Shown here piece after piece: positions 5,363 to 49,030 of a stretch of 64,000 nt of DNA. Source of the DNA: Siphonodentalium dalli. Taxonomy: Eukaryota; Mollusca; Scaphopoda; Gadilida; Siphonodentaliidae. The stretch covers positions 82,935,980 to 82,999,979 of the forward strand of contig CP136063.1 in the NCBI GenBank assembly GCA_032622095.1. The letters run 5' to 3'. Each line of letters begins with the position of its first letter. Position 1 is the stretch's first letter. The notes beneath the pieces are model-generated. The model saw only the letters and a list, made by a program, of their open reading frames with translations, was not told where the DNA came from and did not search any database. The translations under genes were made by a program, and so were the position numbers.

Positions 5363-6403
5363 ATTATAAAATTCATCGAAGAAACGTCCAAATGTCGACG
5401 GAATTTTATCAATAATCGGCGTATTTGCTGTCCAATTTATGACAGGTGTGACTTGTTGTTCGTCGACACCTGTTGATTGTGACACCTAGTTGTCATGTCT
5501 GGCAGAGGTCAGCAAAATTACTAAATAATTAGTGTTTACGTCATGTTTACATCGGCCATCGCTGACCACGAATTAGAAATGGCAAATGGTTCATTGAAAT
5601 TTTGCATCTGAAAGTGAAACGTTTTCCCCTTGAGCATATTGTCTTCTACTTAGTATGAATAGTACAGTGTATATGTCTAGTATTCAAGTAAAACTTCAAC
5701 CGAACAAGCCTCAGTTCGAATAATATTATTCGTTATGAATTGGAAACACCCACACTCTTGTGTGTTGTGAGACTGAGAGAGATCTTGACATTTTTAAATT
5801 ATACTCTTTCACTTTAGAAATTAGATTAACTTTAATCATATTTGTATTACAGTAGTATGCTCTCTCCAAAAAACGATCCACTGAAACCAACATTTACAGT
5901 ACATTCTATGTGTCAAAGTACCTTTGAGCACCGTAGTTGAACTGGCATTGGCCAGTGCACTGCGGCGGAAGGACATGTAGTAGTATGATGTACACATGCA
6001 GGGTTTCCGCCAGGGAGAAATTAATGAGTCCATATTGGGGAAATACATAACGCAACGGGACGACTATGGTTCGTTCCGTCCGGCGAAATTTTTTTTATTT
6101 GACACTGAAAAGTAGCAATTTCCTTGCACCTAGGAGTCCCACAAAGCAGCACAAAGCTACGTATATCGAAAATCGCCCATATATTACGCAAAAGTCAATC
6201 TTTTCCGTGGGTGCTTTAATTCTGTTGATGGCGTCCAGATAATCAATCAATTAGTTATGCACGTAAGACTGTCGTCTGATTGAAGACTATATATTAATGA
6301 ACAAGCTACGAGTTAGTGTTTACAAATTTATACTATAAGATTCCGACAGGTATAATGAATCTAAACACTGCAAAGCATCTATGCATTGACCAATAATAGA
6401 TAG
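5363..6403. other. Unassigned intergenic sequence
   Basis: No recognisable gene. A CAGGGTTTCCGCC motif at 5999, with inverse forms at 7564-7574 and 12016-12026, suggests eroded hAT ends, but no matching 8-bp duplication was found. Confidence 0.4.
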
Positions 6404-6614
6404 TGTAACGGGAGAAGGGTGGAATGTGGGAGCCACCCCGAAAGTCAGCACCTCCGATCGCCGCCCGGTCACCCATCCAAGTACTAACCGGGCTCGACGT
6501 TGCTTAACTTCGGTTTAATATCAGACAAGGCGTCTTAACCACTGGACCAAAGAAGCATGCTCCGTTGGAGCTGTAGATTAATCGGCCTTCTATATTTACA
6601 ACACGACCGCTACA
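6404..6614 (-). mobile_element. Solo LTR of the 5S-containing TRIM family
   Basis: Read on the minus strand it begins TGTAGCGGTCGTGTTGTAAA and ends CCGTTACA, matching both LTRs at 12418-12941 from end to end. It is flanked by a 4-bp duplication, ATAG (6400-6403 and 6615-6618), so it is a genuine insertion reduced to one LTR, probably by LTR-LTR recombination. It holds a 5S rRNA-like block (6446-6514). Ahead of that is a tRNA-like 5' half with an A-box-like TGGTCCAGTGG. Confidence 0.85.
6446..6514 (-). ncRNA. 5S rRNA-derived promoter block inside solo LTR
   Basis: On the minus strand the order is ACCGAAGTTAAGC (box A region), GGTTAGTACTTGGATGGGTG (intermediate element) and a diverged GGTGCTG end (box C region). 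The first ~40 and last ~15 nt of 5S rRNA are missing, so this is not a functional 5S gene. Only the internal pol III control region has been kept. Confidence 0.8.
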
Positions 6615-7859
6615 ATAGCAAGGAGAATTGAATAAAGTATTTCCTAGAATTTCAAGCAGCTTCTGTGAAAATGAAACTTGACAGCTAGGATATACGCTGT
6701 CAATCGTAAAACTATTTGTGCGCTGTGACGTCATACTGCAGGGTTTGTCTGCAGGAGATATTTATAGCGGCGGAATACGAATGGTAGCGACATCTTTCAC
6801 TCGGAATGCGTAGCTTGTTCAATAGTCTCTATTAGTCCATAAACTGACGACCGCAATTGCTTATTATGCGTATACCCGGTATTGCCATGCATAGTCAACA
6901 AAATCCCAAAGAGATTTATTTCACAATAATACGGAACCTGTCCCGAAATCAGTCTTTATAGTGGGAATTCATAGTGACAAGTTAACAACACCATTCATTT
7001 GATCCATATTACATACATGGAGGATAAAGACAAACACATACCCCCTCCCCAATATGGAGATAAAGTCAAAGTACAGTAAATAATAGTTGTGTTGTCCCGC
7101 CTGGGTCCCCAAGCACAATCAACGACGCACATGTTCACATTTTCTGCCAAAATTATATTTTATAACACGCTGGCTAAAACTCTGTTCTGTACCTCATGGA
7201 CTCTGCAGAGGGACCCATTAATTATGTGCCGACTAAGAAATTCGGCATTCTTTGATCAAATTATGTAATCGTAGGATATCACGGGATTTTTGAGCATGAG
7301 TAGTTTCATCCCGTGCACAAAAATATGCATACTCAGCAGTCCGGCATTCTTTGATGTTACCGCGACATGTATTACGCTGTATCTAACGTCGCTATTTGAC
7401 CCGCATTTCACCAGTATTCTGTTTAACCCCCGAACTCCCGTTGCAACCGAATTTTTTTTACGACATATTGCAACTGACATTTGGTATATGTATGAACCAA
7501 ACAGATAAAAAAAAAATCTGTGAGGGCAATGAGGCCGTCCTACGGACGCTGAGCCGTACTAACGGAAACCCTGCCATGCCATGGTTGTTTAATTTAAACG
7601 GATCCGCAACAACTTGGGCCGAAGACAATAATTACACTGAAGCCTAACGGATTTTGGGGTTATCAGTCCCTGGCTGCTTATTTTTTGTATTTTACTACCA
7701 TTTACGATCAGTTAAGGATGAGCAGATTATCACTACGGCTTATCGGGACAAGCCGATAATCATGATATCGGTTGATTATCGGTATCTGGATAAATATGCT
7801 GTCTCTCTGATCCAATATATATGTATGATTTTTAGGTACACATATTCTCAAAATAAGTG
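6615..7859. other. Unassigned sequence with eroded element ends
   Basis: Non-coding as far as can be seen. It contains a GATAATC-rich zigzag (7740-7790) and a GGAAACCCTG end (7565-7574) resembling hAT termini. No gene is supported. Confidence 0.4.
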
Positions 7860-9840: not shown

Positions 9841-12417
9841 GAGCAGAAGAAAGTAGTATCCAATATAAAATGCATAGGCATCCTGGAGTATTCACAGAAA
9901 CCAGAGCTTAACCCATTTTAAATAAACAACTGCCTGTTATGAAGGACACACTAACTGGGTCACTGTGTCATACAACAAACACGTGCGAGTCACGCGAATC
10001 AACTCAGTGTAACTATTTACGGCAGACACTTTGATGTTACCGACTTAGTAGCAAATACTAGTAAGATAGAAAGTTAGATACAACTCACACTGTACGCAAA
10101 TATTAAACACGCATTTCTGATCATCTGATGTCCAAACACGTACAATGTCGTACATGTACCGGTACTGTAAGCCAGTGTAAGGAATATGTGATAACTTGCT
10201 GTTAATTGCACTGAAAGATAGCAGGTAATAAATTCTGCTAATTAAAACTTTCTGGGATTGAAACGAAATAGGTCGGATATATGTGATATGTGACCATAAA
10301 CAACAATACTATTTAGTGATTTGATAATATGGACAAGTTGTCATATAAAAATAATGATCTTCTATGAAGAGAAATATGAGAGAATGAACATACAGTAGGT
10401 TTGATTGAAAGGGCAAGTATATATTGCATAAAACGATCTCTCTTTCAACACCAGCACCTGGAAAATTGCGTAGGCAGAAATGAATAGAATGGCATAAAAT
10501 GTGTAACCTCAAGCCCATCAATATCAGAGAGATATTCCATGCAAGAGGAATAACTCTAAACCCATGGTCATAGCCTAATACCTTGGATCTTCACACTGGA
10601 GCTCATTCTAGTAGCCAATATATACATTGGAAGTTGTCTCTGAAACGTGATGGAACAAGTGAACTAATATACATGTACACCTGCTTAAAGGAAAATGACA
10701 TACCTCACTAAGTATGTGATATTGAAATATCTTTAATGCATGTTAAAGGGGTGTACTACACTATTTTATCACTTTCAAATGGCTGGTTAAAAAAAAAAGT
10801 GTAAACAAAAAAAATCCCTGCCTGCCTACTTGGAAAAATTTCCCTGTGTTTTTTTGTTTTTTTTGGGCCCTAGTATGGATGCAAACATTGAGCATTTGTG
10901 GGAGGGTTGTGATCTTTTAAACAGGTTGAATATTGTTCACAAACAGGGAACGTTAATAGCTTTTTCATGGCAAATATCGATCTCTATTGTAAACATCATG
11001 TTTTTCCATGTTTTATTCAATAAAATAATAAATTACACTATATTCTAATGGGATCTACTTAGTTTTATTATTTTATAGTCAATTACAAACAAGGAGAAGT
11101 TGGCTTGGGGGTCGCATTCAAATTTTATTCGAGCAAAGTTGAAAATAAAATGAAAAAATTAAATAAAATGAAAAGCCACAGGAATGTAGCATTCTACTAA
11201 CATCGCTGAACATTTTAAATAAATCGATCATACAACTCCCTAGCAAACACTGTCTGAACTACGCTCAATTGTAAGTATTTACATCTTGATTCGGGACGCA
11301 ACAATCGGCGATAATCTAACATAAATGGCTTCGCCATCGAGAGTCATTGCATTTAATTAATATACAAGAATGACAGTGTGTATCGTCAATTTGGACTAAT
11401 ATTAGTAATAAATAACAACTTTGAGCAAGGTTATTTTCAATTTCTATTTGATCACCCTACCCGAGTGTTTCACATCACTTTAATTGGACAGGGAATAAAT
11501 ACATTGATAATAAGTTAATAACTATTAATATTTTAATTGTTTTATTTTGAAATAAACATTTCTTTGATACAGACCTTGTTTAGGGGTAAAATGTCTTCAC
11601 TGTTCGTCGCAGTGACTGCCAGAACTCTCCTGTGTTCATGGTTGCAGCTCAGAATTCAGCCCCCCCTAATGACTTACAAATGTATAATGCGCACTTTGAG
11701 GGAAATAGTGGGTCAGAAAGTTGAGACTTGTCGACAGAAATCTACAGTAAATTAAAATGCGCGAGGTTGATTAATACTAAACATTCGCCGACAAAGCGTT
11801 ACACAGGATGGTGTTAACAACTGTGCACGTGGTCCGCGCTACTGATCATGTCTTATTCAGACAGGATTCCTTGCAATCTGTTAATCATCAGTGTTGGTGA
11901 TCGCTAGTCCTGTGTAAAAAATAGGGCTGAGCTAGGTCAGTGGCTATTTTGTGGTCAATATTAAGTCAAGTTGTGGAGGGGAATGAGGCCGCTGGACGGC
12001 CGGCCTGCCGTAGTAGCGGAAACCCTGCATTAAGCTACTTTCTTCTTCATGTATTAATTTAACTAACATACTGGGGGTGGTGGGGGTAGAATATACAAAC
12101 CGATGAACAGAGCTGCACGAGTCTCAGAAAAGTGTTTTCACAGTTTGAAACACATAAATGTATGGAACCGCACATGCATATAACTTTATTGTCAGTTTTG
12201 CATGTTCGGTCATGTAGTTACAAATTGAGTAATTGTCTCCTTCTATCGTGTCAGTTCCGTTGTCGTCCGAAACTGTTTTCTATAGCATGTAACAATAAAG
12301 AGCGTTCATATACTTTTACGAACAATCGTCATGAAAAAAAGCTAATTTTCCAGTTGTTTTAAAATTTTCACACAAGCTCGTTATTCGTACCACCATACCA
12401 TATATTAAATAAACCAA
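9841..12417. other. Unassigned intergenic sequence
   Basis: About 2.6 kb of AT-rich sequence without a recognisable gene. Short frames here lack splice signals or family resemblance. A GGAAACCCTG element-end motif lies near 12017. Confidence 0.4.
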
Positions 12418-12627
12418 TGTAGCGTCGCGTTGTAAATATAGAAGGCCAATGACTTCTCTGCTCGACAGATCTAGATCTCTTGGTCAGAGCCGTCAGATGC
12501 TTTGTGTGATCACCGAAGTTCAGCAACGACGAGCTCGGTTAGTCCTTGGATGGGTGACCGGCTTGGGATTTCGGGTGCTGCCAACTTTCAGTGCGACTCC
12601 CGCACTTCTCTCTCTCGTTCTGTTACA
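12418..12627 (+). repeat. 5' LTR of the TRIM
   Basis: It starts TGTAGCGTCGCGTTGTAAAT, ends TCTGTTACA, and is bounded by TG...CA. The 5S-like segment is at 12507-12580, with GATCACCGAAGTT, GGTTAGTCCTTGGATGGGTG and TTCGGGTGCTG. It is preceded by CTTGGTCAGAGCCGT, the diverged counterpart of the tRNA-like A box in the solo LTR. Confidence 0.85.
12507..12580 (+). ncRNA. 5S rRNA-derived segment in LTR1
   Basis: It corresponds to the central and 3' part of 5S rRNA carrying pol III boxes A, IE and C. The IE core GATGGGTGACC is intact. The 5' domain of 5S is absent, so it is a captured promoter, not a ribosomal gene. Confidence 0.8.
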
Positions 12628-12628
12628 C

Positions 12629-12646
12629 TGGGGGCTCGTCCGCTCC
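12629..12646 (+). promoter_or_regulatory. Primer-binding site (tRNA-Pro)
   Basis: TGGGGGCTCGTCCG begins 1 nt after LTR1. These 14 bases are the complement of the conserved 3' end of animal tRNA-Pro including CCA. This supports priming of reverse transcription by tRNA-Pro. Confidence 0.8.
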
Positions 12647-12709
12647 CCGGAGTCTGTGTCATGAAGCGACCGCTCTGGGGGAGGACTTGGGTGAGATTCG
12701 GTTAATCTC

Positions 12710-12727
12710 AAAAAGAACGGGGGGTAG
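12710..12727 (+). promoter_or_regulatory. Polypurine tract next to the 3' LTR
   Basis: AAAAAGAACGGGGGG followed by TAG abuts the TGTAGC start of LTR2. It is purine-rich with one C. The position is that expected for plus-strand priming. Confidence 0.7.
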
Positions 12728-12941
12728 TGTAGCAGTCACGTTGTAAATATAGAAGGCCGATGACTTCTCTACTCGAGAGGTCTAGATCTCTTGGTCACAG
12801 CCGTTCGACGCTTTGTGTGATCACCGAAGTTAAGCAATGTCAAGCTCGGTTAGTCCTTGGATGGTTCACCCGGCTTGGGATTTCGGGTGCTGCTAACTTT
12901 CGGTGCGACTCCCGCACTTCTCTCTCTCTCGTTCTGTTACA
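12728..12941 (+). repeat. 3' LTR of the TRIM
   Basis: It is homologous to LTR1 over its whole length, from TGTAGCAGTCACG to GTTACA. The 5S-like segment is 12817-12892. It keeps GTTAAGCA, closer to genuine 5S than LTR1, but has an altered IE (GGATGGTTCACC). Confidence 0.85.
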
Positions 12942-13018
12942 CCAATAATAATTATAGAATAAACATGATTTGTTGTTTATGCTGAAGAATACCAGGACTT
13001 GATTATTCAGACTTTAAT

Positions 13019-14877
13019 TAGGGGTGCCACGATTAATCGTATAATCGATGAACCATTGATAAAGCCGATAATCGATTATCATTTCCGTCGTCGATTAATC
13101 TCCATTATTTATTTCGGACATCGGAAAGTGCCACGTATTATTGAATATGGTGTTTGTTTTACACAGTTTAATCTACAATGGAAGGGTTCACAACCTTTGA
13201 TCGTGCATCAAAGAGATTCCGATAACATGAGTACTACTAATATATGTTGCAAACAGTGGGCAGTTAATTTGATGATACAACATGGTTACTTTTTGGGTCG
13301 TTGTATATTCTACAAATTGGCGGCAATGTGGCTTTGAACTTGTGGCAACGTCGTTGTATATTTCTACAAGAAAGACGGCACAATGTCTTTGAAATGTGCC
13401 GACTGTCACCGTGTTAAATGAACTGAATGCACTCGCCCTTGAATCTGATTGGACAAATGAGGAAATGATTGACATTCTCTCGAAATCAGGGAACCTACGG
13501 CATCAGCGATGTTCTCCGCGATGTCATTTGCGAGTATACTTCATTTGCATGAGTATACTTAGATGTTACTAGTAAAGGCTATCAATTATCATGTGGTGAC
13601 TGCTGAATGAAACTCTCTATTATCAATTACTTAACTTGTTCTGAGTCCTGAAATTTCCGGGTGGGGGCCCACCTTTGTGATTGTTATCCACACTCTGGAT
13701 GTTTGCTGAAACTTGTAGTTTCCGTAACATTAGACTTGTTTTTTTTTAGGAACCGCCGGCGGTCCGTAGTGCATTCCTACTTTTAAATTGTTATTATGTT
13801 TGGCTATTCATAACACTGAAATTAATGGCTATGTTCGTTCTAATGAACTCACAATTATTATAACCATGACATCGCCGATGTGCTGGTATAGATTCTATAG
13901 AATACATTGTGCTCCTTAGTCATTACCGGTGGTTTATGGTGAACATTATTAACGTAATATTCCGTAATATGGCCTATTGGCTGGGTGTTGGTTTACTGCA
14001 GTGTCGCTGGTTGTTTGAGGCATCAGCTGATGTCATTTTATGTTAATAAAGTGCATCATAAACCACTGTTAATGACAAATGAACACAATGTATTCCATAC
14101 AATGTATTCCGTAGCTATTAATTTCAGTGTTATGAATAGCCAAACATACAAACAATATAAAAGTAGGAATGCACGATGGATGGCCGACGGTTCCTAAAAA
14201 AATGAAACTATAAGTTTCATCAAACTTCGAGAGCATGGATAACAATCACAAAGGTGTGCCCCCACCCGCAAATTGCAGGAATCAGAACAAGTTATGTATT
14301 TGATAATATCGAGTTTCATTCAGCATTCACTGCATGATACGTAATAACATGTACTAGTAACATCTAAGTATACTCATGCAAACAACGTATTCTCGCAAAT
14401 GACGTCGCGGAGAACATCGCTGATTAAAATGCCGTAGGTTCCCTAGTTTCCAGAGAATGTCAATCAACTCCCCATTGGTTCAATCAGATTCAAGGGCAAG
14501 TGCATTCAGTTCATTGAACATGGTGACAGTCGGCATATTTCAAAGATGTAGTGCTGCCTTTCAAGTATAAATATACAATGACGTCGCCATAAGTTCAAAG
14601 TTGCAGTGCTGCCAATTTGTAGAACATAAAACGACCCGAAGAGTAACCATGTCACATCATCAAATGAACTGCCGACTGTTTGCAATTGATATGCAATCAT
14701 AGGTTGTTAACCCATCGGTTGTAGATTAAACTGTGTAAAACAAACACGGTATTCAATAATACCCGACATTTTCCGATGTAAAAATAAATAATGCAGATTA
14801 ATCGACACTGTAAATGGTAATTGATTATCGGCTTTATCAACGGTTCATTGATTATACGATAAATCATGGCACCCCTA
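13019..14877. mobile_element. 1.86-kb hAT-like foldback element
   Basis: Two arms of about 850 bp are inverted copies around a centre near 13950. For example, GAACCGCCGGCGGTCC near 13750 pairs with the diverged inverse near 14185-14197. Termini are TAGGGGTGCCA and its inverse TGGCACCCCTA, a typical hAT end. The 8-bp flanks ACTTTAAT and CATTTAAT agree at six positions. Short frames are mirror images of each other and not genes. Confidence 0.75.
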
Positions 14878-16729: not shown

Positions 16730-17745
16730 CTTACTTTGTAAGTTTGAGCTATTGCCATGGGTTGGCGTCCGTCGTCCGTGTGTCTGTGTGTCCGTCAACA
16801 ATTTCCTTTGGCGCGGGCTACAGGTCGTACCTTTGGTCTGATCTTTATGAAATTTGTCATGAATGTTGACATTGACATGTAGATGGGAACGAGTCATTTT
16901 GGGGTCATTCGGCCGAAAAACATGGCCGCTAGCAGCCATCTTGGATTTCAAAATTAAATCCATTGGCGCGGTCTACATGTCGTACTGTTCGTCTGATCAT
17001 CATGAAATTTGTCATGAGTGTTAATATTGACATGTAGATGGGAACGAGTCATTTTGGGGTCGATCTGTCAAAAAACATGGCCACCAGCAGCCATTTTGGA
17101 CTTTACTCTTCGCATGACTAAATCCTTTGGCGCGGGCTGCAGGTCGTAGCTTTAGTCGGATCTTCATAAAATTTGTCATGGATGTTAACAATGACATGTA
17201 GATGGGAACGAGTTATTTTGGGGTCGCTCGGCCAAAAACATGGCCGCCAGCAGCCATCTTGGATTTTACTCTTTGCGTGACTAAATCCTTTGGCGTGGGC
17301 TACAGGTCGTAGCTTTCGTCTGATCTTCATGAAATTTGTCATGGATGTTAACAACGACATGTAGATGGGAACGAGTGATTTTGGGGTCATTCGGCCAAAA
17401 AACATGGCTGCTGGCGGCCATCTTGGATTTCAAAATTAAATCCATTGGCGCGGTCTACAGTTCGTTCTGTTCGTCTGATCATCATGAAATTTGTCATGGA
17501 TGTTAATATTGACATGTAGATGGGAACGAGTCATTTTGGTGTCGTTCTGCCAAAAAACATGGCCGCCAGCAGCCATCTTGGATTTTACTCTTTGCATGAC
17601 TAAATCCTTTGGCGCGGGCTACAGATCGTAGCTTTGGTTGGATGTTCATGAAATTTGTCATGGATGTTAACAATGACATGTACATGTAGATGGGAACAAG
17701 TCATTTTGGGGTCGTTCGGCCAAAAAACATGGCCAGGATAAGAGC
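16730..17745. repeat. Tandem array, ~150-bp units (GCCATCTTGGATTT)
   Basis: Six or so units repeat AAATCCTTTGGCGCGGGCTAC, GATCTTCATGAAATTTGTCATG, GACATGTAGATGGGAACGAG and AACATGGCCGCCAGCAGCC. The minus-strand open frames across it are by-products of the repeat. Related arrays occur at 21640-22140 and 48060-50290. Confidence 0.8.
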
Positions 17746-21640: not shown

Positions 21641-22140
21641 TGTCCGTCAACAATTTCCTTTAGCACGGGCTACAGGTCATACCTTTGGTGGGATCATTAT
21701 GAAATTTGTCATAGCTGTTGACATTGACATGTAGATGGGAACGGGCCATTTTGAGGGGAATTCGACAAAAGAACAAGGCTGCCAGCGGCCATCTTAGATT
21801 TCAAAATTCAATCCATTAGCATGGGCTACAGGTCGTACTGTTCGTCTGATCATCATGAAATTTGTCATGGATGTTAATATTGACATGTAGATGGCCAAAA
21901 AACATGGCCACCAGTGGCCATCTTGGATTTCAAAATTCAATCATTAGCACGTGCTACAGGTCCTACTGTTCATTTGATCATCATGAAATTTGTCATGGAT
22001 GTTAATATTGACATGTAGATGGGAACGAGTCATCTTGGGGTCATTAGCCGTGGGCAGCCATCTTAAATTTTACTCTTTGCATGACTAAATTCTTTGGCAC
22101 TGGCTACAGGTCGTACCTTTGGTCGGATCATCATCAAACG
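21640..22140. repeat. Array related to 16730-17745
   Basis: Three to four units of ATCATCATGAAATTTGTCATG, GACATGTAGATGG and GCCATCTTGGATTTCAAAAT. More diverged than the 17-kb array. Confidence 0.7.
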
Positions 22141-24201: not shown

Positions 24202-24382
24202 TACAGTAATGCCCTAAATAATCGACTCCTTAACCACAGCAGAATTATGGGTAATTTTTCAGGATTTAGTCAGAAAGAGAGCTTTCCGATGAATGGCAGC
24301 AAGCCATATTTCCAACTAAATCCTGAAAAATTACCCATAATTCTGTGTGGTTAAGGAGTCGATTATTTAGGGCATTACTGCA
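24202..24382. mobile_element. TA-type palindromic MITE just before the giant exon
   Basis: CAGTAATGCCCTAAATAATC...GATTATTTAGGGCATTACTG is almost one continuous hairpin (24204-24380). Other copies, some partial, are at 31860-32070, 41339-41642, 33510-33629 and 59781-59879. It ends 43 nt before the acceptor AG of exon 24424. Confidence 0.8.
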
Positions 24383-24423
24383 CTATTCTAAAAGTGACAG
24401 TTGTTTTCTTGTTTTTTTTTCAG

Positions 24424-27400
24424 AAATTTGGTCTCTTGTCACATCTCCAGCTACATGCCAAAGCTCACCACCATCGTCTGACATATCAGTGTTCGTGCTG
24501 TAAAGAGACATTCAGTGACATCAGTCAACTGAAGTCACACCAGCGGAAGAACCATCTATCTAAGTCATACGAGTGTGAGCAGTGTTCCAAATCATTCGTT
24601 CTACATCGGGACTTGACTGTCCATCTCTGGAAACAGCACAGGCTATGGTATCGTAAAAGGTCACATATTCTGAAGCGACACCGACGCATTGTTTGTAGAA
24701 TCAGTAAACATGAACTGTTAGCCGAGAGTTCAGGCCCATCGACATCAGCGGATGCTCTGAAAAGGGGTCGTCAACCTCGAAATGCGAGAATAAAAAATTC
24801 CAGAAAGAAAACACCAAAAGATCAACAACTTGAGCCAACGACACAGTGTCGGATAATTTCTCCTACAAAATTAGTTATCGCAAAATTTAGTAGCAGTAAG
24901 CGAAAGTCCGTTAAAAAGGTGATAGACATGGCCAGCTATGACAAGAAACTAATTCCTGAAAAGCTGCCTGCATTTGAGTGCCACATTGATCCATCACAGA
25001 CAAAGATTTGCTTGCGTCCTGTTACAACGCACTCTGTTAAAAACGAGAATAAGCTATTACCTCAAGGAAAGAAATCAAGAGTCAGTACAGAATCGGGAGT
25101 AGATGCATTTGATTCGTCGGAAACATCGACGCCTGAGCACAGTTCAGCAGTCGATGCACACACTTCAGATTCCGGTGTTGAATGTAACCTGGTGACATGC
25201 AAGAAGCTGGAATATAAGTGCAAAGAGAAAACAATCGATGAGAATTGCAATAAGGATAACAGCGGGAATCATAATGATGTCGTGGAAATTCCAAAAGATG
25301 AAATGTGCGACAAGTGGCTTATGCAACACGAATTGTTTAATGATGAGACGAAAAGTCGGAAATCTGCTGCGGTAACTCCCGAGTCTAACGCTGAACATGA
25401 TACTTGCGAGAAATCTGTGATTGACCCTATAATCCCAGCTGAGACGGCAGCGACAGTGATGACTGTTGGCGTGAAAGAGAACACAAGTTCAGCAGTGATC
25501 TATGAGGAATCAAAAATAGAAAACGAAACGGACGATGATGTGGAGTTGATTGAGTTTATTCCTGGGAACTTATCCGCAGATGTGATTGAAAGAACTGATA
25601 TGAAAAGATCTTTGGAGACTGCTGCAGTGGATATAAACTCTAAGCATTCCAATATGACTTTGATGGAGTTGCCACATAATAAACAGAGCTGTGAACCGGA
25701 TTCTCCTGCTAGTGCTTGTTCTGACATAGAAATGGTTTCATTAGAGTCAGATAACGGAAATAAGAATTCAACTCCATTAGATGAAGATTCAAAATCAATT
25801 AATGAGGGTGGATGTTTCAAGGATGTTATGATGACTAAAGAAAAAAGTGAAGCAGTTTTCAAAAACAATACAGATATCGACCATGACAGTTTATCTATGG
25901 ATTCTAAGAGTGTTGATGTGGTGCATGTACCATCTGTTGATCAGGGTAACGAGAAATACCCTAAAGTAATTTGTGATGACTCAGATTTCAACTATTTGAA
26001 GGAAAATAACTGTATTGAGAAACCAAAACCAACTTCAAACTTTGTGAGTGCATTCATGAATTTCGTTATGGAGAAGAAATCAGAAGATGACAAGATTCTC
26101 ACTGCTGTTAACAAAGGTCATCGTCGGAAGTCAGACACAATTCTAGTGGAACTATCAGATAGATTTAGTGACTCAAATGATTCTTTCACTAGCATCAGCG
26201 AAAAGAAGAGGGGGCGAAAGAAACGGAAAGATAATGCAGGTCGTAAACCATCAACACGAAAGCAGTCAGGAATACAGAAAGACTCTGACGCTGAGATAGA
26301 CGCTGGGATAGATGATCCCGGTCAAGGTCAGCAAAGGAGGTCGCGAAGAAGTGTATGTCGTCAAAGAAAACCCAGAAGACAAAGTACTGATTTGAATGAT
26401 GAGGAAGATCAGGAGACTTCATGTGAGTTGTCAGAAGGCCAGCCAAGGAAAATATTGCGATGTCGGCGGCCTTCTAGAAAGGAGAAAGATGTTGTGAATC
26501 GAGAGGAAATTATGGACACCCAATCGAAAAGACTCAAAAATAAAGGTTCTATCCAAGAAGATACATTGGCTAAAACATCTGAAAGTTTGGAAGATTCCGA
26601 TGTCAGACATGATAAGACAGAGTGTAAATCGATAGATGAAGCCAATGTAGGCCCGAGAAAGAGAGGCAGGCCACGAAAAATAGTCAAACAATCTGATTCC
26701 AATGAAAACACTTCTTATGGCGCAAATATGCAAACATCAAGTGTGAAACAAAACAAAACTGAAATCAAAATGTGTGTGGAAACCGAAAAATCAAGCTTCG
26801 AGACAGAGAATAAAAAAGTGAAAGAAAAAGCAAGTGGAGGAAGTGAACAAATGAGTAAAGAAACTGAAAAAAAATGTGATGAACTGGAAGAAACAAGTGT
26901 AGACATTGAAAAAGCAAGTGTAGCAATGGAGAACAGAAATGTAGAAGAAGAAAAAGCAAGTACAGAAACTGAAACAACAAGTGATAACAAAGAAAAGAAA
27001 AATGTAAAGACAGAGGAATCAAGTGTAGAGATGAATGACAGAATGCTAGAAAAAGAAAAAATAAGAACTGAAACTGATAAAACAAGTGAAGACAAAGAAA
27101 AGAAAAATGTAAAGACAGAGAAATCAAATATAGTTATGGAGGAGAGAACGGTAGAAGAAGAAAAAACGAGAACAGAAACTGATAAAACAAGTGAAGATAA
27201 AGAAAAGAAAAATGTCAAGACAGAGAAATCAAGTGTAGAAATGGAAGATTCAAATGTCGGGGCTGTTTCCAATAAAGATCAAATTGAATGTAATGGTGAA
27301 GTAGTAAGTGCAATTTCACCAAGGACTGACACAAATTCAGACCATTCAGATGATAGTGCCAGCTATATGAGTGATACAGAAAACATTGTTTCACATAGGA

Positions 27401-30400
27401 CTCGTAGAAGTTCACTTCGTGCTGAAGAAAAAAATAATATTCGACACTCTGCTCGTCGCCGGAGAACTGTATCATACTGCCTCACTTCAGACGATGACTC
27501 GGAAGAAACTCCAGTGGAAAGTGACGCTGATGTGCCTATGTCCATTGGCACAAATGATAGTTGTAATTCCGATTCTGATTGGTGCAGCTCTCAAATGGAT
27601 GATGGATCAGAACTTTCCCAAGATGCTGATTCGGTTCCTGGCGATAATACTGAACATAAAACTGCTTCACCAAAAAAGGAAAAACGTTCTCGGAGGACGT
27701 CGAGAAAGAGATTCAGTGCTAAAAGTCATTGTCCGTGTTGCATGGGCGGATCATCACCAAAAAGAAAGCAAATTGTAAAACCAGCTTCGTGTTTTCAAAA
27801 AGGAAAGTACCGATACCCAACGCCAGCATTTGCCAAAGAGTTTGAAGAATTCATGAGAAAGGTGTTGATAGCCCGATGGTACATGCATAAGCTTTTCTGT
27901 GTCATCTTTCCACAGCTGCTGCCAACTTTGCGCCTCGTGAATCCAGAATCATCTGATTTTGATTTCATTGTTTGCGAAGTTGAGAAACATTTAAAAGCTG
28001 ATCAATCTCCAGATAGCTTGACTTTGTCATTCAATACTGCTGAATCTGTCAGTGATTTCATCTCAACGGAAGATAGTGCTGATAAATGTGCTGTGCATTC
28101 AAGGGCTACAGAATATTATTCAAGTGATGTCACATCAAGCTTATGTGTCGAAATACCAGACGACAGTAGCGGGCATAAGTCTAAGCTATCAGACATGGAG
28201 AAAATGTTAGAAATGTGTCTTAGTCAATATTCGTGTAATTCTTCTGGGAATGAGGATTCATCAGGATTATTAACAACTGTCACGTCTGCCAATATATGCT
28301 GTACAGACTCAAACCTGGTGGGCTCTTCTTGCAATCTAGTCAATGGAACGGCAGCTTTAAACCATTGTCATCCTTCACGGACAAATTCAGTATGTGACGA
28401 TCATCATCAAATCATTCACAACTCTCAAAGTGAGAGCTTGACATCAGAGATGGATATCTCTGGTGCTGCCCAGGATGAGATTCTTAGTGCCAATGACACA
28501 GATCACATGACTTCAGTGCAATATTCAACGTCGACCAATCCCATTCAGAGTGCTTGTTTTAGTTCAACCAACATGACACAACATCAGTTGACAACAGACT
28601 GTAAGGATAAAACTGATCAGAAAACTGTTTTGGATCAGCATGAAACTGCCGATAATTCAAACCTTTCGACTTCTAAAAGTTCAAAGTCTCTCAAGCATGA
28701 CAATATATTTGATATTTTTAATAGCTCTCCTACTCTAAGGTGTGAAGCAGATAATGACAAACCCAAGAACAAGAAACTTAACACAATTGTGCTGCCTGAA
28801 AATTCATTACCAAAAGGTATTCCACCATTGGCCAACAAAGATATATGTTCATCAGCATGTGCTTTGGCAAAAGACAGACAGTCTCCAGAAAAAATTATTC
28901 CAAATTCACCAAACAAGCAATCAAAGTCACGTATTGTTTTTGAGCGCATGAATGAGTTTTTAAGCTCCCGGTCAACATCAAACACAGATTGTTCACAAAA
29001 CGAGAAAATTGACAGTGCATCTGCCATGCCTAAACGCTCTTCATGTCCAGGAATATTTCAGATGTTAGAAAATTCTAATGGAAACGTGGAGAAAGAAAAA
29101 TTGGATAACCACAAGTGCTCTATGGACAAATCAGACTTGGACTACCAAAACACTAGTGTTCATTCTTGTCCGTCTTTCTCTGAGTCTAAGGATGAGAAGG
29201 CTAATGACGAGATTAAAGTTTCGATGAAAGAAAGCAGTCCGGGTGTATTTGAAAAAATGAACTCCCTGCTGACGTCAGCACCACCACCCCCAGCACCGAA
29301 GTCGAGCGAAAAGAAAACGGAGACTCATGCAAATACAATAGGTGAATCAATAAATGTTTTCGAGAAAATGAGAAAACTCTTCAGTTGTGATTCTGATAAA
29401 AAATGCAGCAGTTCTGAAACACTGGAGCAGCAGCCTATTGAAACAAACATTCCGCCTGTTGACTGTGTTTCATTAAATAGTATTGTTGTAGATGTCCTGC
29501 CCGGAACATTCTCAGTGTCATCATGTGATTCATTCTCTGATTCTGGCATCCCGTTAGGCTCCGAAGAGGAAGACGAGATGGATCTGAGTGACTTTGAGGA
29601 GCTAATGGAGCAAAATTCAAAACCGATGTTCTCTCATGCCGAAAATAAAGACAGCAATCAGTTGACAACAACATCAAATGGCAGCTGTATATTCATATCA
29701 TCTGATCAGGATGGTGCTATCGATGGACAAGGTACGGTGGGCTACCCAGGAGGCACTACAGAAGAGAAACCTGTATCCGAGACCAATCATGTGCATGACG
29801 AGTCAATAGTACGTCCAGCTTGTCAGATAGACGGCGATCAGTTAGGAAATTCAACTGGTCAGATTGTGTCTGAAAATAGTCAGTCGCATATGGAATCAGA
29901 TATAAATTCTGAAACTTTGCGACAAGACTTAATTGAACTTCCTGTGATACCGTTCAACAGTAGTTTGAATGCTGAAGGCTGTGAATCTGCATCAAAGATA
30001 GATAACTCTGCTGAGTCCATTCCAGGAATTCTGCTTCCTATCAGTACTGTTAGTGGTGATATGTGTGGAAATACGATCAATGGCGAAAAAGTGACAGAGA
30101 ATCTCGCCGACAGTGTCTCAGATAAAGTTGTTAACGACACGCCTCTTCAAGCTGATCCTGACCTAAATGACGTGTTTATCAATCCGTTCAAAGTGGGTAG
30201 CGATTTGCAAACTCATCCTGCCATAAGCGACCTGCCAAATGTGGAGAGTCAGGCATGGGGTGATAATACTCTAGATGCCAAAGTAGAAGAAGACAATTCT
30301 GTGAGCACCAAAGTGGGAGGCGATGCATCGTCAGATCGTCTTTCGCCAATAGTCGCTATTCCGGCCTCTTTTGTGCCAATGTGTCGTAACCCTTCTGCCT

Positions 30401-30582
30401 GCTGGGTGTCGATGAAGGCGCAGATCAGTTGTATTGTCGAGAAGCTATTCCCAGACTGTTCCTTACTGGATGAGGTCATCGATAACACTGATTGTTTTCA
30501 GTATTTATTTGAGTCTCTTGTCGATGCAAATACTGTGTGTACTTGCAGCTCTGAAGTTGATCAAATACAACAAATGGCATAA
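24424..30582 (+). CDS. Zinc-finger/AT-hook nuclear protein, giant terminal exon
   Basis: It encodes 2052 residues, giving about 2098 aa with the exon at 19803. The start of this exon completes finger 2 (H57, H61). Finger 3 (C69, C72, H85, H90) and finger 4 (C97, C100, H113, H118) follow. Then come long Ser/Glu/Lys-rich disordered regions, a basic nuclear-localisation-like block (~640-665) and an AT-hook KRGRPRK (~790-798). A Lys/Glu region of ~35-residue repeats spans ~826-988. A Cys-rich block HCPCCMGG (~1149) precedes a helical segment. Five FE(K/R)M-type motifs lie in the C-terminal half, and a distinct Cys/Trp-containing C-terminus ends the protein. Probably a chromatin-associated transcription factor; I do not recognise the orthologue. 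Stop TAA 30580-30582. Confidence 0.9.
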   Translation, partial: KFGLLSHLQLHAKAHHHRLTYQCSCCKETFSDISQLKSHQRKNHLSKSYECEQCSKSFVLHRDLTVHLWKQHRLWYRKRSHILKRHRRIVCRISKHELLAESSGPSTSADALKRGRQPRNARIKNSRKKTPKDQQLEPTTQCRIISPTKLVIAKFSSSKRKSVKKVIDMASYDKKLIPEKLPAFECHIDPSQTKICLRPVTTHSVKNENKLLPQGKKSRVSTESGVDAFDSSETSTPEHSSAVDAHTSDSGVECNLVTCKKLEYKCKEKTIDENCNKDNSGNHNDVVEIPKDEMCDKWLMQHELFNDETKSRKSAAVTPESNAEHDTCEKSVIDPIIPAETAATVMTVGVKENTSSAVIYEESKIENETDDDVELIEFIPGNLSADVIERTDMKRSLETAAVDINSKHSNMTLMELPHNKQSCEPDSPASACSDIEMVSLESDNGNKNSTPLDEDSKSINEGGCFKDVMMTKEKSEAVFKNNTDIDHDSLSMDSKSVDVVHVPSVDQGNEKYPKVICDDSDFNYLKENNCIEKPKPTSNFVSAFMNFVMEKKSEDDKILTAVNKGHRRKSDTILVELSDRFSDSNDSFTSISEKKRGRKKRKDNAGRKPSTRKQSGIQKDSDAEIDAGIDDPGQGQQRRSRRSVCRQRKPRRQSTDLNDEEDQETSCELSEGQPRKILRCRRPSRKEKDVVNREEIMDTQSKRLKNKGSIQEDTLAKTSESLEDSDVRHDKTECKSIDEANVGPRKRGRPRKIVKQSDSNENTSYGANMQTSSVKQNKTEIKMCVETEKSSFETENKKVKEKASGGSEQMSKETEKKCDELEETSVDIEKASVAMENRNVEEEKASTETETTSDNKEKKNVKTEESSVEMNDRMLEKEKIRTETDKTSEDKEKKNVKTEKSNIVMEERTVEEEKTRTETDKTSEDKEKKNVKTEKSSVEMEDSNVGAVSNKDQIECNGEVVSAISPRTDTNSDHSDDSASYMSDTENIVSHRTRRSSLRAEEKNNIRHSARRRRTVSYCLTSDDDSEETPVESDADVPMSIGTNDSCNSDSDWCSSQMDDGSELSQDADSVPGDNTEHKTASPKKEKRSRRTSRKRFSAKSHCPCCMGGSSPKRKQIVKPASCFQKGKYRYPTPAFAKEFEEFMRKVLIARWYMHKLFCVIFPQLLPTLRLVNPESSDFDFIVCEVEKHLKADQSPDSLTLSFNTAESVSDFISTEDSADKCAVHSRATEYYSSDVTSSLCVEIPDDSSGHKSKLSDMEKMLEMCLSQYSCNSSGNEDSSGLLTTVTSANICCTDSNLVGSSCNLVNGTAALNHCHPSRTNSVCDDHHQIIHNSQSESLTSEMDISGAAQDEILSANDTDHMTSVQYSTSTNPIQSACFSSTNMTQHQLTTDCKDKTDQKTVLDQHETADNSNLSTSKSSKSLKHDNIFDIFNSSPTLRCEADNDKPKNKKLNTIVLPENSLPKGIPPLANKDICSSACALAKDRQSPEKIIPNSPNKQSKSRIVFERMNEFLSSRSTSNTDCSQNEKIDSASAMPKRSSCPGIFQMLENSNGNVEKEKLDNHKCSMDKSDLDYQNTSVHSCPSFSESKDEKANDEIKVSMKESSPGVFEKMNSLLTSAPPPPAPKSSEKKTETHANTIGESINVFEKMRKLFSCDSDKKCSSSETLEQQPIETNIPPVDCVSLNSIVVDVLPGTFSVSSCDSFSDSGIPLGSEEEDEMDLSDFEELMEQNSKPMFSHAENKDSNQLTTTSNGSCIFISSDQDGAIDGQGTVGYPGGTTEEKPVSETNHVHDESIVRPACQIDGDQLGNSTGQIVSENSQSHMESDINSETLRQDLIELPVIPFNSSLNAEGCESASKIDNSAESIPGILLPISTVSGDMCGNTINGEKVTENLADSVSDKVVNDTPLQADPDLNDVFINPFKVGSDLQTHPAISDLPNVESQAWGDNTLDAKVEEDNSVSTKVGGDASSDRLSPIVAIPASFVPMCRNPSACWVSMKAQISCIVEKLFPDCSLLDEVIDNTDCFQYLFESLVDANTVCTCSSEVDQIQQMA
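26757..27250 (+). repeat. In-frame 105-bp coding repeat (35 aa)
   Basis: Units starting at about 26958, 27063 and 27168 encode variants of RTETDKTSEDKEKKNVKTEK; earlier units are more diverged. The period is exactly 105 bp. The repeat is Lys/Glu/Thr-rich, likely disordered or coiled, and prone to length variation. Confidence 0.8.
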
Positions 30583-48054: not shown

Positions 48055-49030
48055 TAGTTCAACTTAACAACGTAAAGTTTGGGTTGGTGTCCGTTGTCCA
48101 ATGCATGCATCTGTGTGTCCAACTGTGCATCAACATTTCCTTCGGCATTGCCTACAGGCTGCATCCCTCATCCGATCTTCACCAAACTTCATACTGACAT
48201 ATGTAGCTTCAAGGTGTCCTATGGATGGGAGCTAACAAATTATTCTGAATTTCGATTAAAAACATGGCTGCTGAATTTGAATCTATCAGCACACCCTACA
48301 GCCCGTATTATGGCCGGATCATTTTTTTTATTTTGTAGGCATGATTGTGATCACGTGTAGATAGGAGCTATCAAATTTGAACGATTTTCGATGAAAAACA
48401 GGGCTGCTTGCAGCCATCTTAGATTTTACTCTTTGCATGACTAAATCCTTTTGCACACCCAACAGACCACATCTCTCATCCTATCATAAAACTTCAAATG
48501 GATCTTCGGGTTGACCTCTAGATGGGAGCCTCCTATTTTGACCGAAATTTGTTGGAAAATATGGCTGCCAGTGGCCATCTTGGAATTTACTCTTTGCATG
48601 TCTAAATCGTTCGGCAAACCCTACAGGACACATGTCTCATTTGATCGTCACCAAATATCATATGGATCTTAGGTTTGACCTCTAGATGTGAGCCTCCTAT
48701 TTTGACCGAAATTTGTTAAAAAACATGGCTGCCAGCAGCCATCTTGGATTTTACTCTTTGCATGAATAAATCATTTGGCACACCCTGCAGACCACATCCC
48801 TCATCTGATGATCACCAAACGTCATATGGATCTTCGGGGTGACCTCCAGATGGGAGTCTCATATTTTGACTGAAATTCATTGAAAACATGGCCGCCAGTG
48901 GCCATCTTGGAATTTACTCTTTGTATGACTAAATCCTTTGGCGCACCCTGCAGACTACATCCCTCATCTGATCATCACCAAACTTTATATGGATCTTCAG
49001 GGTAACCTCTAGTTTACTTTCCTTTATCAT
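48055..49030. repeat. Degenerate tandem array (GCCATCTTGGATTTTACTC)
   Basis: Five to six units with ACCACATCCCTCATCTGATC, GACCTCTAGATGGGAGCC and AACATGGCTGCCAGCAGCC. Same superfamily as 16730-17745 but a different subfamily. Confidence 0.75.

What the first reader, a model, noticed from the sequence alone, without database searches (positions are those of the whole stretch)
12418..12941. Animal Cassandra-like TRIM: LTRs built around a 5S rRNA promoter
Seen directly: two ~210-bp TG...CA direct repeats, each with the 5S internal control region; a 14-nt tRNA-Pro primer-binding site 1 nt after the first; a polypurine tract before the second; and a CCAA duplication outside. Established: Cassandra TRIMs with 5S-bearing LTRs are known from plants. 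Inference: this animal element has the same architecture, either by convergent capture of a pol III promoter or through an unrecognised animal lineage. Pol III transcription from the LTR would give an unusual replication route for an LTR element with no genes.
Basis: partly seen in the sequence, partly recalled or inferred. Interest (0 to 1): 0.92.

Follow-up and report, generated by a model that had tools for sequence, protein, structure and literature searches.

The report
Animal 5S-promoter mini-LTR retrotransposon, Gypsy-assisted
This is a real, gene-less jumping element whose two end repeats carry the control region of a 5S ribosomal RNA gene; elements of this kind were already known from plants and ribbon worms, and a hybrid copy in this genome points to the larger retrotransposon that may copy it.

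Summary
12418-12941 is a 210-nt LTR, a 100-nt interior and a 214-nt LTR, with a 14-nt tRNA-Pro primer-binding site, a purine tract and a CCAA duplication. Each LTR carries only the 5S internal control region (host 5S +41 to +113; 64 of 73 identical in the 5' LTR). It is a dispersed family. Exact 4-bp duplications flank 16 of 30 complete-ended copies, against 15 of 870 mismatched pairs. Two copies have gap-free unoccupied paralogous sites in the window. Divergent subfamilies keep the LTR ends, a TATA-like block and the 5S control region while the stretch between drifts.

The kind is already described: Cassandra (plants) and Ajax (nemerteans), called TRIMp3 (PMC10886601). So this is a new member, not the first animal 5S-TRIM. 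It differs from Ajax in duplication length (4 against 5 bp), primer (Pro against Leu) and length.

What I add is a candidate partner. One copy (C9:118842844-118844089) has a Ty3/Gypsy-type LTR joined at the shared tRNA-Pro site to a TRIM interior and TRIM LTR, with AATA on both sides. Pol III transcription is inferred, not shown. The host is an unidentified animal.

The parts
12414..12417 (.). target site duplication CCAA, left copy
   Evidence: 4-bp length supported by 16 of 30 copies
12418..12627 (+). 5' LTR, 210 nt, TGTAGC...GTTACA
12433..12440 (+). TATA-like block TAAATATA, 28-35 nt upstream of the start site predicted from 5S spacing (~12468, inferred)
   Evidence: TAAATATAG exact in 67 of 74 LTRs; LTR 1-33 94% identical between subfamilies
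12508..12580 (+). 5S internal control region (box A, IE, box C; host 5S +41..+113)
   Evidence: 64 of 73 identical to host 5S
12629..12642 (+). primer-binding site for tRNA-Pro, 14 nt, one nt after the LTR
   Evidence: host tRNA-Pro gene in L087
12710..12727 (+). polypurine tract AAAAAGAACGGGGGGTAG
   Evidence: sequence; aligned across 47 internal regions
12728..12941 (+). 3' LTR, 214 nt, with its own 5S control region starting at 12819
12942..12945 (.). target site duplication CCAA, right copy
6404..6614 (-). solo LTR of a divergent subfamily of the same family, with CTAT at 6615-6618 and 6400-6403
   Evidence: 72% over 213 columns; ends and duplication read by eye
13056..13345 (+). unoccupied paralogue of the repeat into which copy L021 (C6) inserted: an empty site
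   Evidence: joined flanks of L021 align without a gap at the junction, 84.6% over the match

Best explanation
It is a terminal-repeat retrotransposon in miniature (TRIM) that carries a 5S-type RNA polymerase III promoter in its LTRs and is copied in trans by a Ty3/Gypsy retrotransposon that also primes with tRNA-Pro. Proposed cycle: TFIIIA/TFIIIC bind the 5S control region in the 5' LTR, and pol III starts about 50 nt into the LTR (inferred from 5S spacing). It reads through because most copies lack a run of four T, passes the 3' LTR and stops at T-runs in the flank. The RNA enters a Gypsy particle and tRNA-Pro primes at the PBS. The strong-stop DNA jumps to the 3' LTR, the purine tract primes the second strand, and the Gypsy integrase joins the TGTAG...TTACA ends to a 4-bp staggered target. 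Shown: anatomy, 4-bp duplications, empty sites, tRNA match, promoter retention between subfamilies, and one Gypsy-TRIM hybrid insertion. Inferred: pol III use, the start site, flank termination, and the identity of the helper.
For: Anatomy and tRNA match. 4-bp duplications in 16 of 30 complete-ended copies, 0 of 30 for 5 bp, control 15 of 870 (L006 and L007 share their flanks, so 15 of 29 independent). Gap-free empty sites for L021 and L039 in the window. 5S control region 64 of 73 identical. Between 74 window-type LTRs and 12 chosen divergent LTRs, identity is 0.94 in LTR 1-33, 0.56 in 34-91 and 0.85 in the control region 92-144, which ranks 9 of 162 windows of that length; L068 is 53 of 53 identical to host 5S +41..+93. 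No TTTT in 47 of 47 internal regions and in 62 of 74 LTRs, while the host 5S gene ends in ATTTT. Helper: L088 joins an LTR ending CCTGTTACA, a C, the 18-nt tRNA-Pro PBS and a gag-like frame. Its LTR begins TGTAGCGG, as do 24 of the 40 TRIM heads printed; a solo copy (L111) shows CGTG on both sides, read by eye. An L088-type LTR on C3 follows a purine tract and an integrase frame (PF22938, E 2.7e-8). Hybrid: L110/L114 carries an L088-type LTR, TRIM interior and TRIM LTR, flanked by AATA on both sides, read by eye.
Against: No transcript data, so pol III use is unproven. The TATA-like block would also suit pol II. Within the window-type group the 5S block is no better conserved than the rest of the LTR (0.938 against 0.948-0.950). 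In one search, 8 of the 162 windows of that length scored higher than the control region (the best, starting at LTR position 94, overlaps it), and LTR 1-33 is better conserved than it. The 12 divergent LTRs include three pairs of loci with near-identical flanks (L055/L056, L059/L060, L077/L078), so about 9 are independent. Fourteen of 30 complete-ended copies lack an exact 4-bp duplication (9 of these match at 3 of 4 positions; 4 of the 14 are tandem arrays). Only 23 of 47 internal regions keep a 14-nt PBS match and 2 keep 15; 15 keep 8-13 and 7 lack TGGGGGC. Twelve of 74 LTRs contain TTTT. Only one hybrid was found. The gag match is below Pfam's cut-off (17.2 against 24.1 bits), and no intact helper with both LTRs and all genes was seen. 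Several other LTR families in this genome have the same primer site. The LTR-start pattern used for the helper gave 9 places with up to one mismatch (7 exact) against 3 for its reversed control.
Confidence: 0.8

Rival explanations
1. A TRIM in which the 5S fragment is a passenger: transcription is by pol II from the TATA-like block, and the 5S control region has no role.
For: TAAATATAG is exact in 67 of 74 LTRs and the first 33 nt of the LTR are better conserved between subfamilies than the control region (0.94 against 0.85).
Against: The 5S control region is retained between subfamilies at 0.85 while the adjacent 58 nt fall to 0.56. In the group whose sequence departs from 5S after box C, L055, L056 and L068 still match host 5S +41..+93 at 52, 52 and 53 of 53; L077 and L078 match at 45 of 53.
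Confidence: 0.15
2. The element is a true TRIM, but its helper is another tRNA-Pro Gypsy; the L110 hybrid arose after integration by recombination or conversion between neighbouring insertions.
For: Several LTR families share the primer site. L089 has 498-nt repeats 99.6% identical and LTR ends TGTAAC and GGTTACA. There is only one hybrid.
Against: The hybrid is flanked by the same 4 bp (AATA) on both sides, as expected of one integration; off-pair 4-bp matches occur in 15 of 870. The two LTRs share only stretches of 7-12 nt, so there is little homology for conversion.
Confidence: 0.25
3. It is a member of Ajax in the strict sense (same lineage as the nemertean elements).
For: Same kind of 5S fragment, covering only the promoter boxes; similar length class (421-434 against 524 bp).
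Against: 4-bp against 5-bp duplications and tRNA-Pro against tRNA-Leu (PMC10886601). Sequence comparison was not possible.
Confidence: 0.1
4. Two 5S-derived SINEs in tandem.
For: Tandem arrays of period about 311 exist in some loci.
Against: TG...CA ends, tRNA-Pro site, purine tract, exact 4-bp duplications in 16 of 30 and gap-free empty sites.
Confidence: 0.01

Closest known systems
Ajax (nemertean TRIMs with 5S in the LTR; Kojima 2024, PMC10886601)
   Same: Gene-less short LTR element in an animal; LTRs carry only the 5S box A-IE-box C region; PBS and purine tract; proposed pol III promoter.
   Different: Ajax is 421-434 bp with 5-bp duplications and a tRNA-Leu primer; this is 524 bp with 4-bp duplications and tRNA-Pro. 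Sequence relation untested.
Cassandra (plant TRIM with 5S in the LTR; PMC7215508, PMC10853983, passages read)
   Same: 5S promoter in both LTRs, no genes, multi-LTR tandem arrays, helper unknown in the passages read.
   Different: According to the abstract of PMC7215508 Cassandra LTRs carry conserved pol III promoters and terminators; here the 5S part is 73 nt and 62 of 74 LTRs have no run of four T. Different kingdom.
Helenus (TRIMs with tRNA-derived LTR promoters; PMC10886601)
   Same: Animal Helenus has 4-bp duplications and is linked to Gypsy helpers; some bivalve Helenus use tRNA-Pro.
   Different: Promoter derives from tRNA, not 5S.
SINE3 (5S-derived SINEs)
   Same: 5S-derived pol III promoter.
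   Different: No LTRs, primer site, purine tract or integrase-type 4-bp duplication (recalled).
Ty3/Gypsy elements with a tRNA-Pro site (L088, L111, L121 in this genome)
   Same: LTR ends TGTAGCGG...CTGTTACA, one-nt spacer, tRNA-Pro site, 4-bp duplication in a solo copy.
   Different: LTR about 931 bp without the 5S block; gag-like and integrase frames nearby.

Membership tests
TRIM | two LTRs, total under 1000 bp, no genes for mobilisation | tested here: met
   524 bp, interior 100 nt; longest start-to-stop frame over the element 71 aa
TRIM | primer-binding site complementary to a host tRNA | tested here: met
   14 nt to a host tRNA-Pro gene; of 47 internal regions 23 keep 14 nt and 2 keep 15
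TRIM | polypurine tract before the 3' LTR | tested here: met
   12710-12727; commonest form AAGAACGGGGGAGTAG in 21 of 47 internal regions
TRIM | integrase-type target duplication of fixed length | tested here: met
   4 bp in 16 of 30, 0 of 30 at 3, 5 or 6 bp; empty sites
TRIMp3 (Kojima 2024) | small-RNA-gene-derived pol III promoter in the LTR | tested here: met
   5S +41..+113, 64 of 73, by sequence only
TRIMp3 (Kojima 2024) | transcription by pol III | not testable with these tools
   no RNA data; Kojima also leaves this open for Ajax and Helenus
Ajax | 5S promoter part in LTR of an animal TRIM | tested here: met
   animal host by 41 Wnt matches
Ajax | 5-bp target duplication | tested here: not met
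   0 of 30
Ajax | tRNA-Leu primer | tested here: not met
   site fits tRNA-Pro
Ajax | sequence homology to Ajax-1_NGe or Ajax-1_LiLo | not testable with these tools
   sequences are in the supplement and Repbase, not readable here
Cassandra | 5S part with terminator, in a plant genome | tested here: not met
   5S part ends at +113, no TTTT in 62 of 74 LTRs; host is an animal
Cassandra | sequence homology to Cassandra outside 5S | not tested
   no Cassandra sequence was fetched
Mobilised by Ty3/Gypsy | shared ends, primer site and duplication length with a Gypsy of the same genome | tested here: met
   L088, L111, L117, L121; ends and duplication read by eye
Mobilised by Ty3/Gypsy | shown to move in trans | tested here: inconclusive
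   one hybrid insertion with AATA on both sides; no assay

The most novel reading that the evidence does not exclude
A 5S-promoter TRIM and its helper can be named as a pair. A pol III-type miniature element and a pol II-type Gypsy share little more than short LTR ends, a tRNA-Pro primer site and a G-rich purine motif, and the hybrid on C9 is a fossil of second-strand transfer between their cDNAs at that primer site inside one particle. If so, those few signals are enough in cis to hijack a Gypsy, and this family may be a third, independent capture of a 5S promoter by an LTR element after Cassandra and Ajax.
Probability: 0.5. Interest if true: 0.65.

Novelty: new member of a known kind. Interest (0 to 1): 0.5.

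Why it matters
For Cassandra the helper is called unknown in the passages read (PMC7215508; PMC10886601). Kojima links animal Helenus to Gypsy through primer sites; in the parts I read no named helper is given for Ajax, and the terms 'chimer' and 'partner' do not occur in that text. Here a specific Gypsy family, matching ends and a hybrid insertion make the trans-mobilisation model testable for a 5S-TRIM. The scarcity of a pol III terminator suggests an answer to how such an element avoids ending its own transcript in the 5' LTR. It also widens the features known for animal 5S-TRIMs beyond those reported for Ajax.

Tried and rejected
Plain tandem 5S-SINEs: rejected by 4-bp duplications and empty sites. 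A 5S gene or pseudogene: no Rfam match at gathering score in the window and no 5S hit in a lax scan of 12300-13050. Conservation inside the window-type group alone does not favour the promoter (0.938 against 0.948-0.950); only the comparison between subfamilies does. The first tRNA-Pro pattern hit two non-tRNA places (ARAGORN 0 genes) because it demanded an extra C; corrected. L089, L090 and L092 as helpers: no family domain was found in the two L089 frames scanned; L090 and L092 frames were not scanned; L092 gave no internal repeat and L090 mostly satellite repeats. L091 carries Integrase_H2C2 (E 5.5e-15) behind a similar end (CCTGCTACA, seen as L072), but its LTRs were not delimited. L118, related to L088 in its gag region, had only 3 frames of 100 aa or more and was not followed further. 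Host identity: no species could be fixed. Two hemocyanin families gave 0 matches with no positive control. A scorpion of 2.23 Gb and nine chromosomes (PMC11126328, passages) has N50 280 Mb, whereas the nine contig lengths give 264 Mb, so it was set aside. A search for a 5S primer string gave 0 papers. The junction sample (17 places that I picked by hand from C1-C3 in the first 100 listed) allowed the duplication test in only 2 loci, both with 4 bp, because divergent LTRs do not align to their ends; one printed row there (L098) is a coordinate artefact and was ignored. In one search several divergent LTRs were cut with extra flank at their 5' end; they were recut, whose numbers I use.

Full report
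What is there. The element at 12418-12941 has a 210-nt LTR, a 100-nt interior and a 214-nt LTR. The LTRs start TGTAGC and end GTTACA. One base after the first LTR stands TGGGGGCTCGTCCG, 14 consecutive matches to the complement of the 3' end (with CCA added) of a host tRNA-Pro gene found by ARAGORN in L087. A purine tract precedes the second LTR. CCAA lies on both sides. No start-to-stop frame longer than 71 aa overlaps it.

The 5S part. The host's 5S genes were found with Rfam RF00001 (47 matches scored). Their +41..+113 aligns to 12508-12580 with 64 of 73 identical (score 101; 500 shuffles of the 3' LTR: mean 15.2, maximum 27). The first 40 nt of 5S are absent. What is kept is the internal control region. 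If 5S spacing holds, transcription would start near 12468, and the TATA-like TAAATATA (12433-12440) would lie 28-35 nt upstream; both are inferences.

It is a mobile family. The genome search scored the best 40 of 2005 first-look candidates; these 40 loci are biased towards copies like the window's. All 40 hold LTR, interior and LTR in order, some truncated; 7 of 40 (L013, L014, L016, L023, L024, L033, L040) are arrays with three or more LTRs. Thirty copies were complete-ended by a BLAST criterion (within 3 nt of both LTR ends) and 10 were dropped. Of the 30, 16 have exact 4-bp duplications and none has an exact 5-bp one, against 15 of 870 mismatched pairs. L006 and L007 share their flanks, so 15 of 29 are independent. 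Of the 14 others, 9 match at 3 of 4 positions. L019, which was dropped, also has a 4-bp duplication. Joined flanks of L021 align across the junction without a gap at it to window 13056-13345, and those of L039 (whose own duplication has one mismatch) to window 17512-17339 and two further places; L009 aligns less well. These are unoccupied sites with a single copy of the target. The junction pattern occurs 163 times against 0 for its reverse; of 17 of these that I picked from the first 100 listed, 16 have TRIM matches and 1 does not.

Age and subfamilies. LTR-LTR mismatch in 22 two-LTR copies has a median of 5.2% (range 1.4-12.6%); the window copy is at 8.1%. Divergent subfamilies (70-79% to the window LTR over matched parts) have the full 18-nt primer site or variants of it. 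Comparing 74 window-type LTRs with 12 chosen divergent ones (about 9 independent, since three pairs share flanks), identity is 0.94 over LTR 1-33, 0.56 over 34-91, 0.85 over the control region 92-144 (rank 9 of 162 windows; the best window, starting at 94, overlaps it), and 0.70 over 145-200. The 12 divergent LTRs match host 5S +41..+93 at 38 to 53 of 53. Within the window-type group the 5S block is not more conserved than the rest, as expected if copies decay neutrally after insertion.

Helper. The full 18-nt primer site occurs at 42 places. The 39 regions read cover 41 of them, and the other lies in L045. L088 has an LTR ending CCTGTTACA, a C, the primer site and a gag-like frame (PF03732, E 0.006, below cut-off). 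Its LTR starts TGTAGCGG. A solo copy (L111) has CGTG on both sides (by eye). On C3 such an LTR follows a GGGAAGGGGGGAG tract and a frame with PF22938 Integrase_p58_C (E 2.7e-8). The TRIM family has the same LTR ends (TGTAGCGG in 24 of 40 heads printed; the window copy itself has TGTAGCGT and TGTAGCAG), spacer, primer and duplication length. Otherwise the LTRs share only stretches of 7-12 nt, and the TRIM interior matches L088 only at the 15 nt of spacer and primer site.

Hybrid copy. At C9:118842844-118844089 an L088-type LTR (931 bp; 96% identical to the 800 nt of L088 compared) is followed at the primer site by a TRIM interior (91% to the window's) and a TRIM LTR (87%), flanked by AATA on both sides. 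In standard LTR retrotransposon replication (recalled) the 5' LTR is donated by plus-strand strong-stop DNA that lands on the primer-site complement. A Gypsy strong-stop landing on TRIM cDNA would give exactly this structure. This is an inference from one locus.

Transcript end. No internal region (0 of 47) and only 12 of 74 LTRs contain TTTT, whereas the host 5S gene ends ATTTT. So a pol III transcript begun in the 5' LTR could read through both LTRs of most copies and stop in flanking T-runs; the 3' LTR copy then supplies the repeat needed for strand transfer. This is inferred and untested.

Comparison with the literature. Kojima 2024 (PMC10886601; outline, the first two of six parts of the whole text, sections 3.7 and 4, figure legends and tables, and passages read) reports Ajax: 5S promoter part in LTRs of TRIMs of two nemerteans, 421-434 bp, 5-bp duplications, tRNA-Leu, 1114 LTRs and 151 interiors in one species. 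It names the class TRIMp3. Cassandra papers were read as passages (PMC7215508, PMC10853983). Four searches of the held library bear on further animal 5S-TRIMs: 20 listed of 191, 512 and 43 papers; 3 of 3. In titles and abstract starts I saw no report besides Kojima's; a 2026 meeting report mentions it (PMC12859917, passages). Unlisted papers, Repbase and most subscription papers were not seen, so this does not show absence from print.

Verdict. It is a new member of TRIMp3 that fails two traits reported for Ajax. The most useful new point is the candidate Gypsy helper and the hybrid insertion. The host is an animal (41 Wnt matches) of unknown species.

Noticed in passing
window 6404-6614 (minus): Solo LTR of a divergent subfamily of the same 5S-TRIM with CTAT on both sides.
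   Followed up: yes
G000 C9:118842844-118844089 (L110, L114): Hybrid element: Gypsy-type LTR, TRIM interior, TRIM LTR, same 4 bp on both sides.
   Followed up: yes
L013, L014, L016, L023, L024, L033, L040: Tandem arrays of LTR and interior (period about 311), as reported for Cassandra; L024 has matching 4 bp at its outer ends.
   Followed up: partly
L089 (C4:146585396-146592895): LTR element with 99.6% identical 498-nt repeats, tRNA-Pro site and a purine tract GGGAGGGGGGAG; looks young.
   Followed up: partly
L044 (C2:216065072): A tRNA-Pro 3' part including CCA facing a primer site of an LTR element in inverted orientation, as if reverse-transcribed primer tRNA had been captured (by eye).
   Followed up: no
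G000 C3:244.76-245.64 Mb: Arrays holding tRNA-Pro genes (265 exact pattern matches genome-wide, first 100 listed, spacing often about 1413 bp; ARAGORN also finds tRNA-Gly in L087).
   Followed up: no
window 16804-17735, 21766-22022, 48394-49012: Tandem repeats with units of about 128-164 bp; the flank of L039 matches those at 16.8-22 kb and also L090 and L107.
   Followed up: no
window 24355-30582 (+): Stop-to-stop frame of 2075 aa whose start looks like C2H2 zinc fingers, by eye.
   Followed up: no
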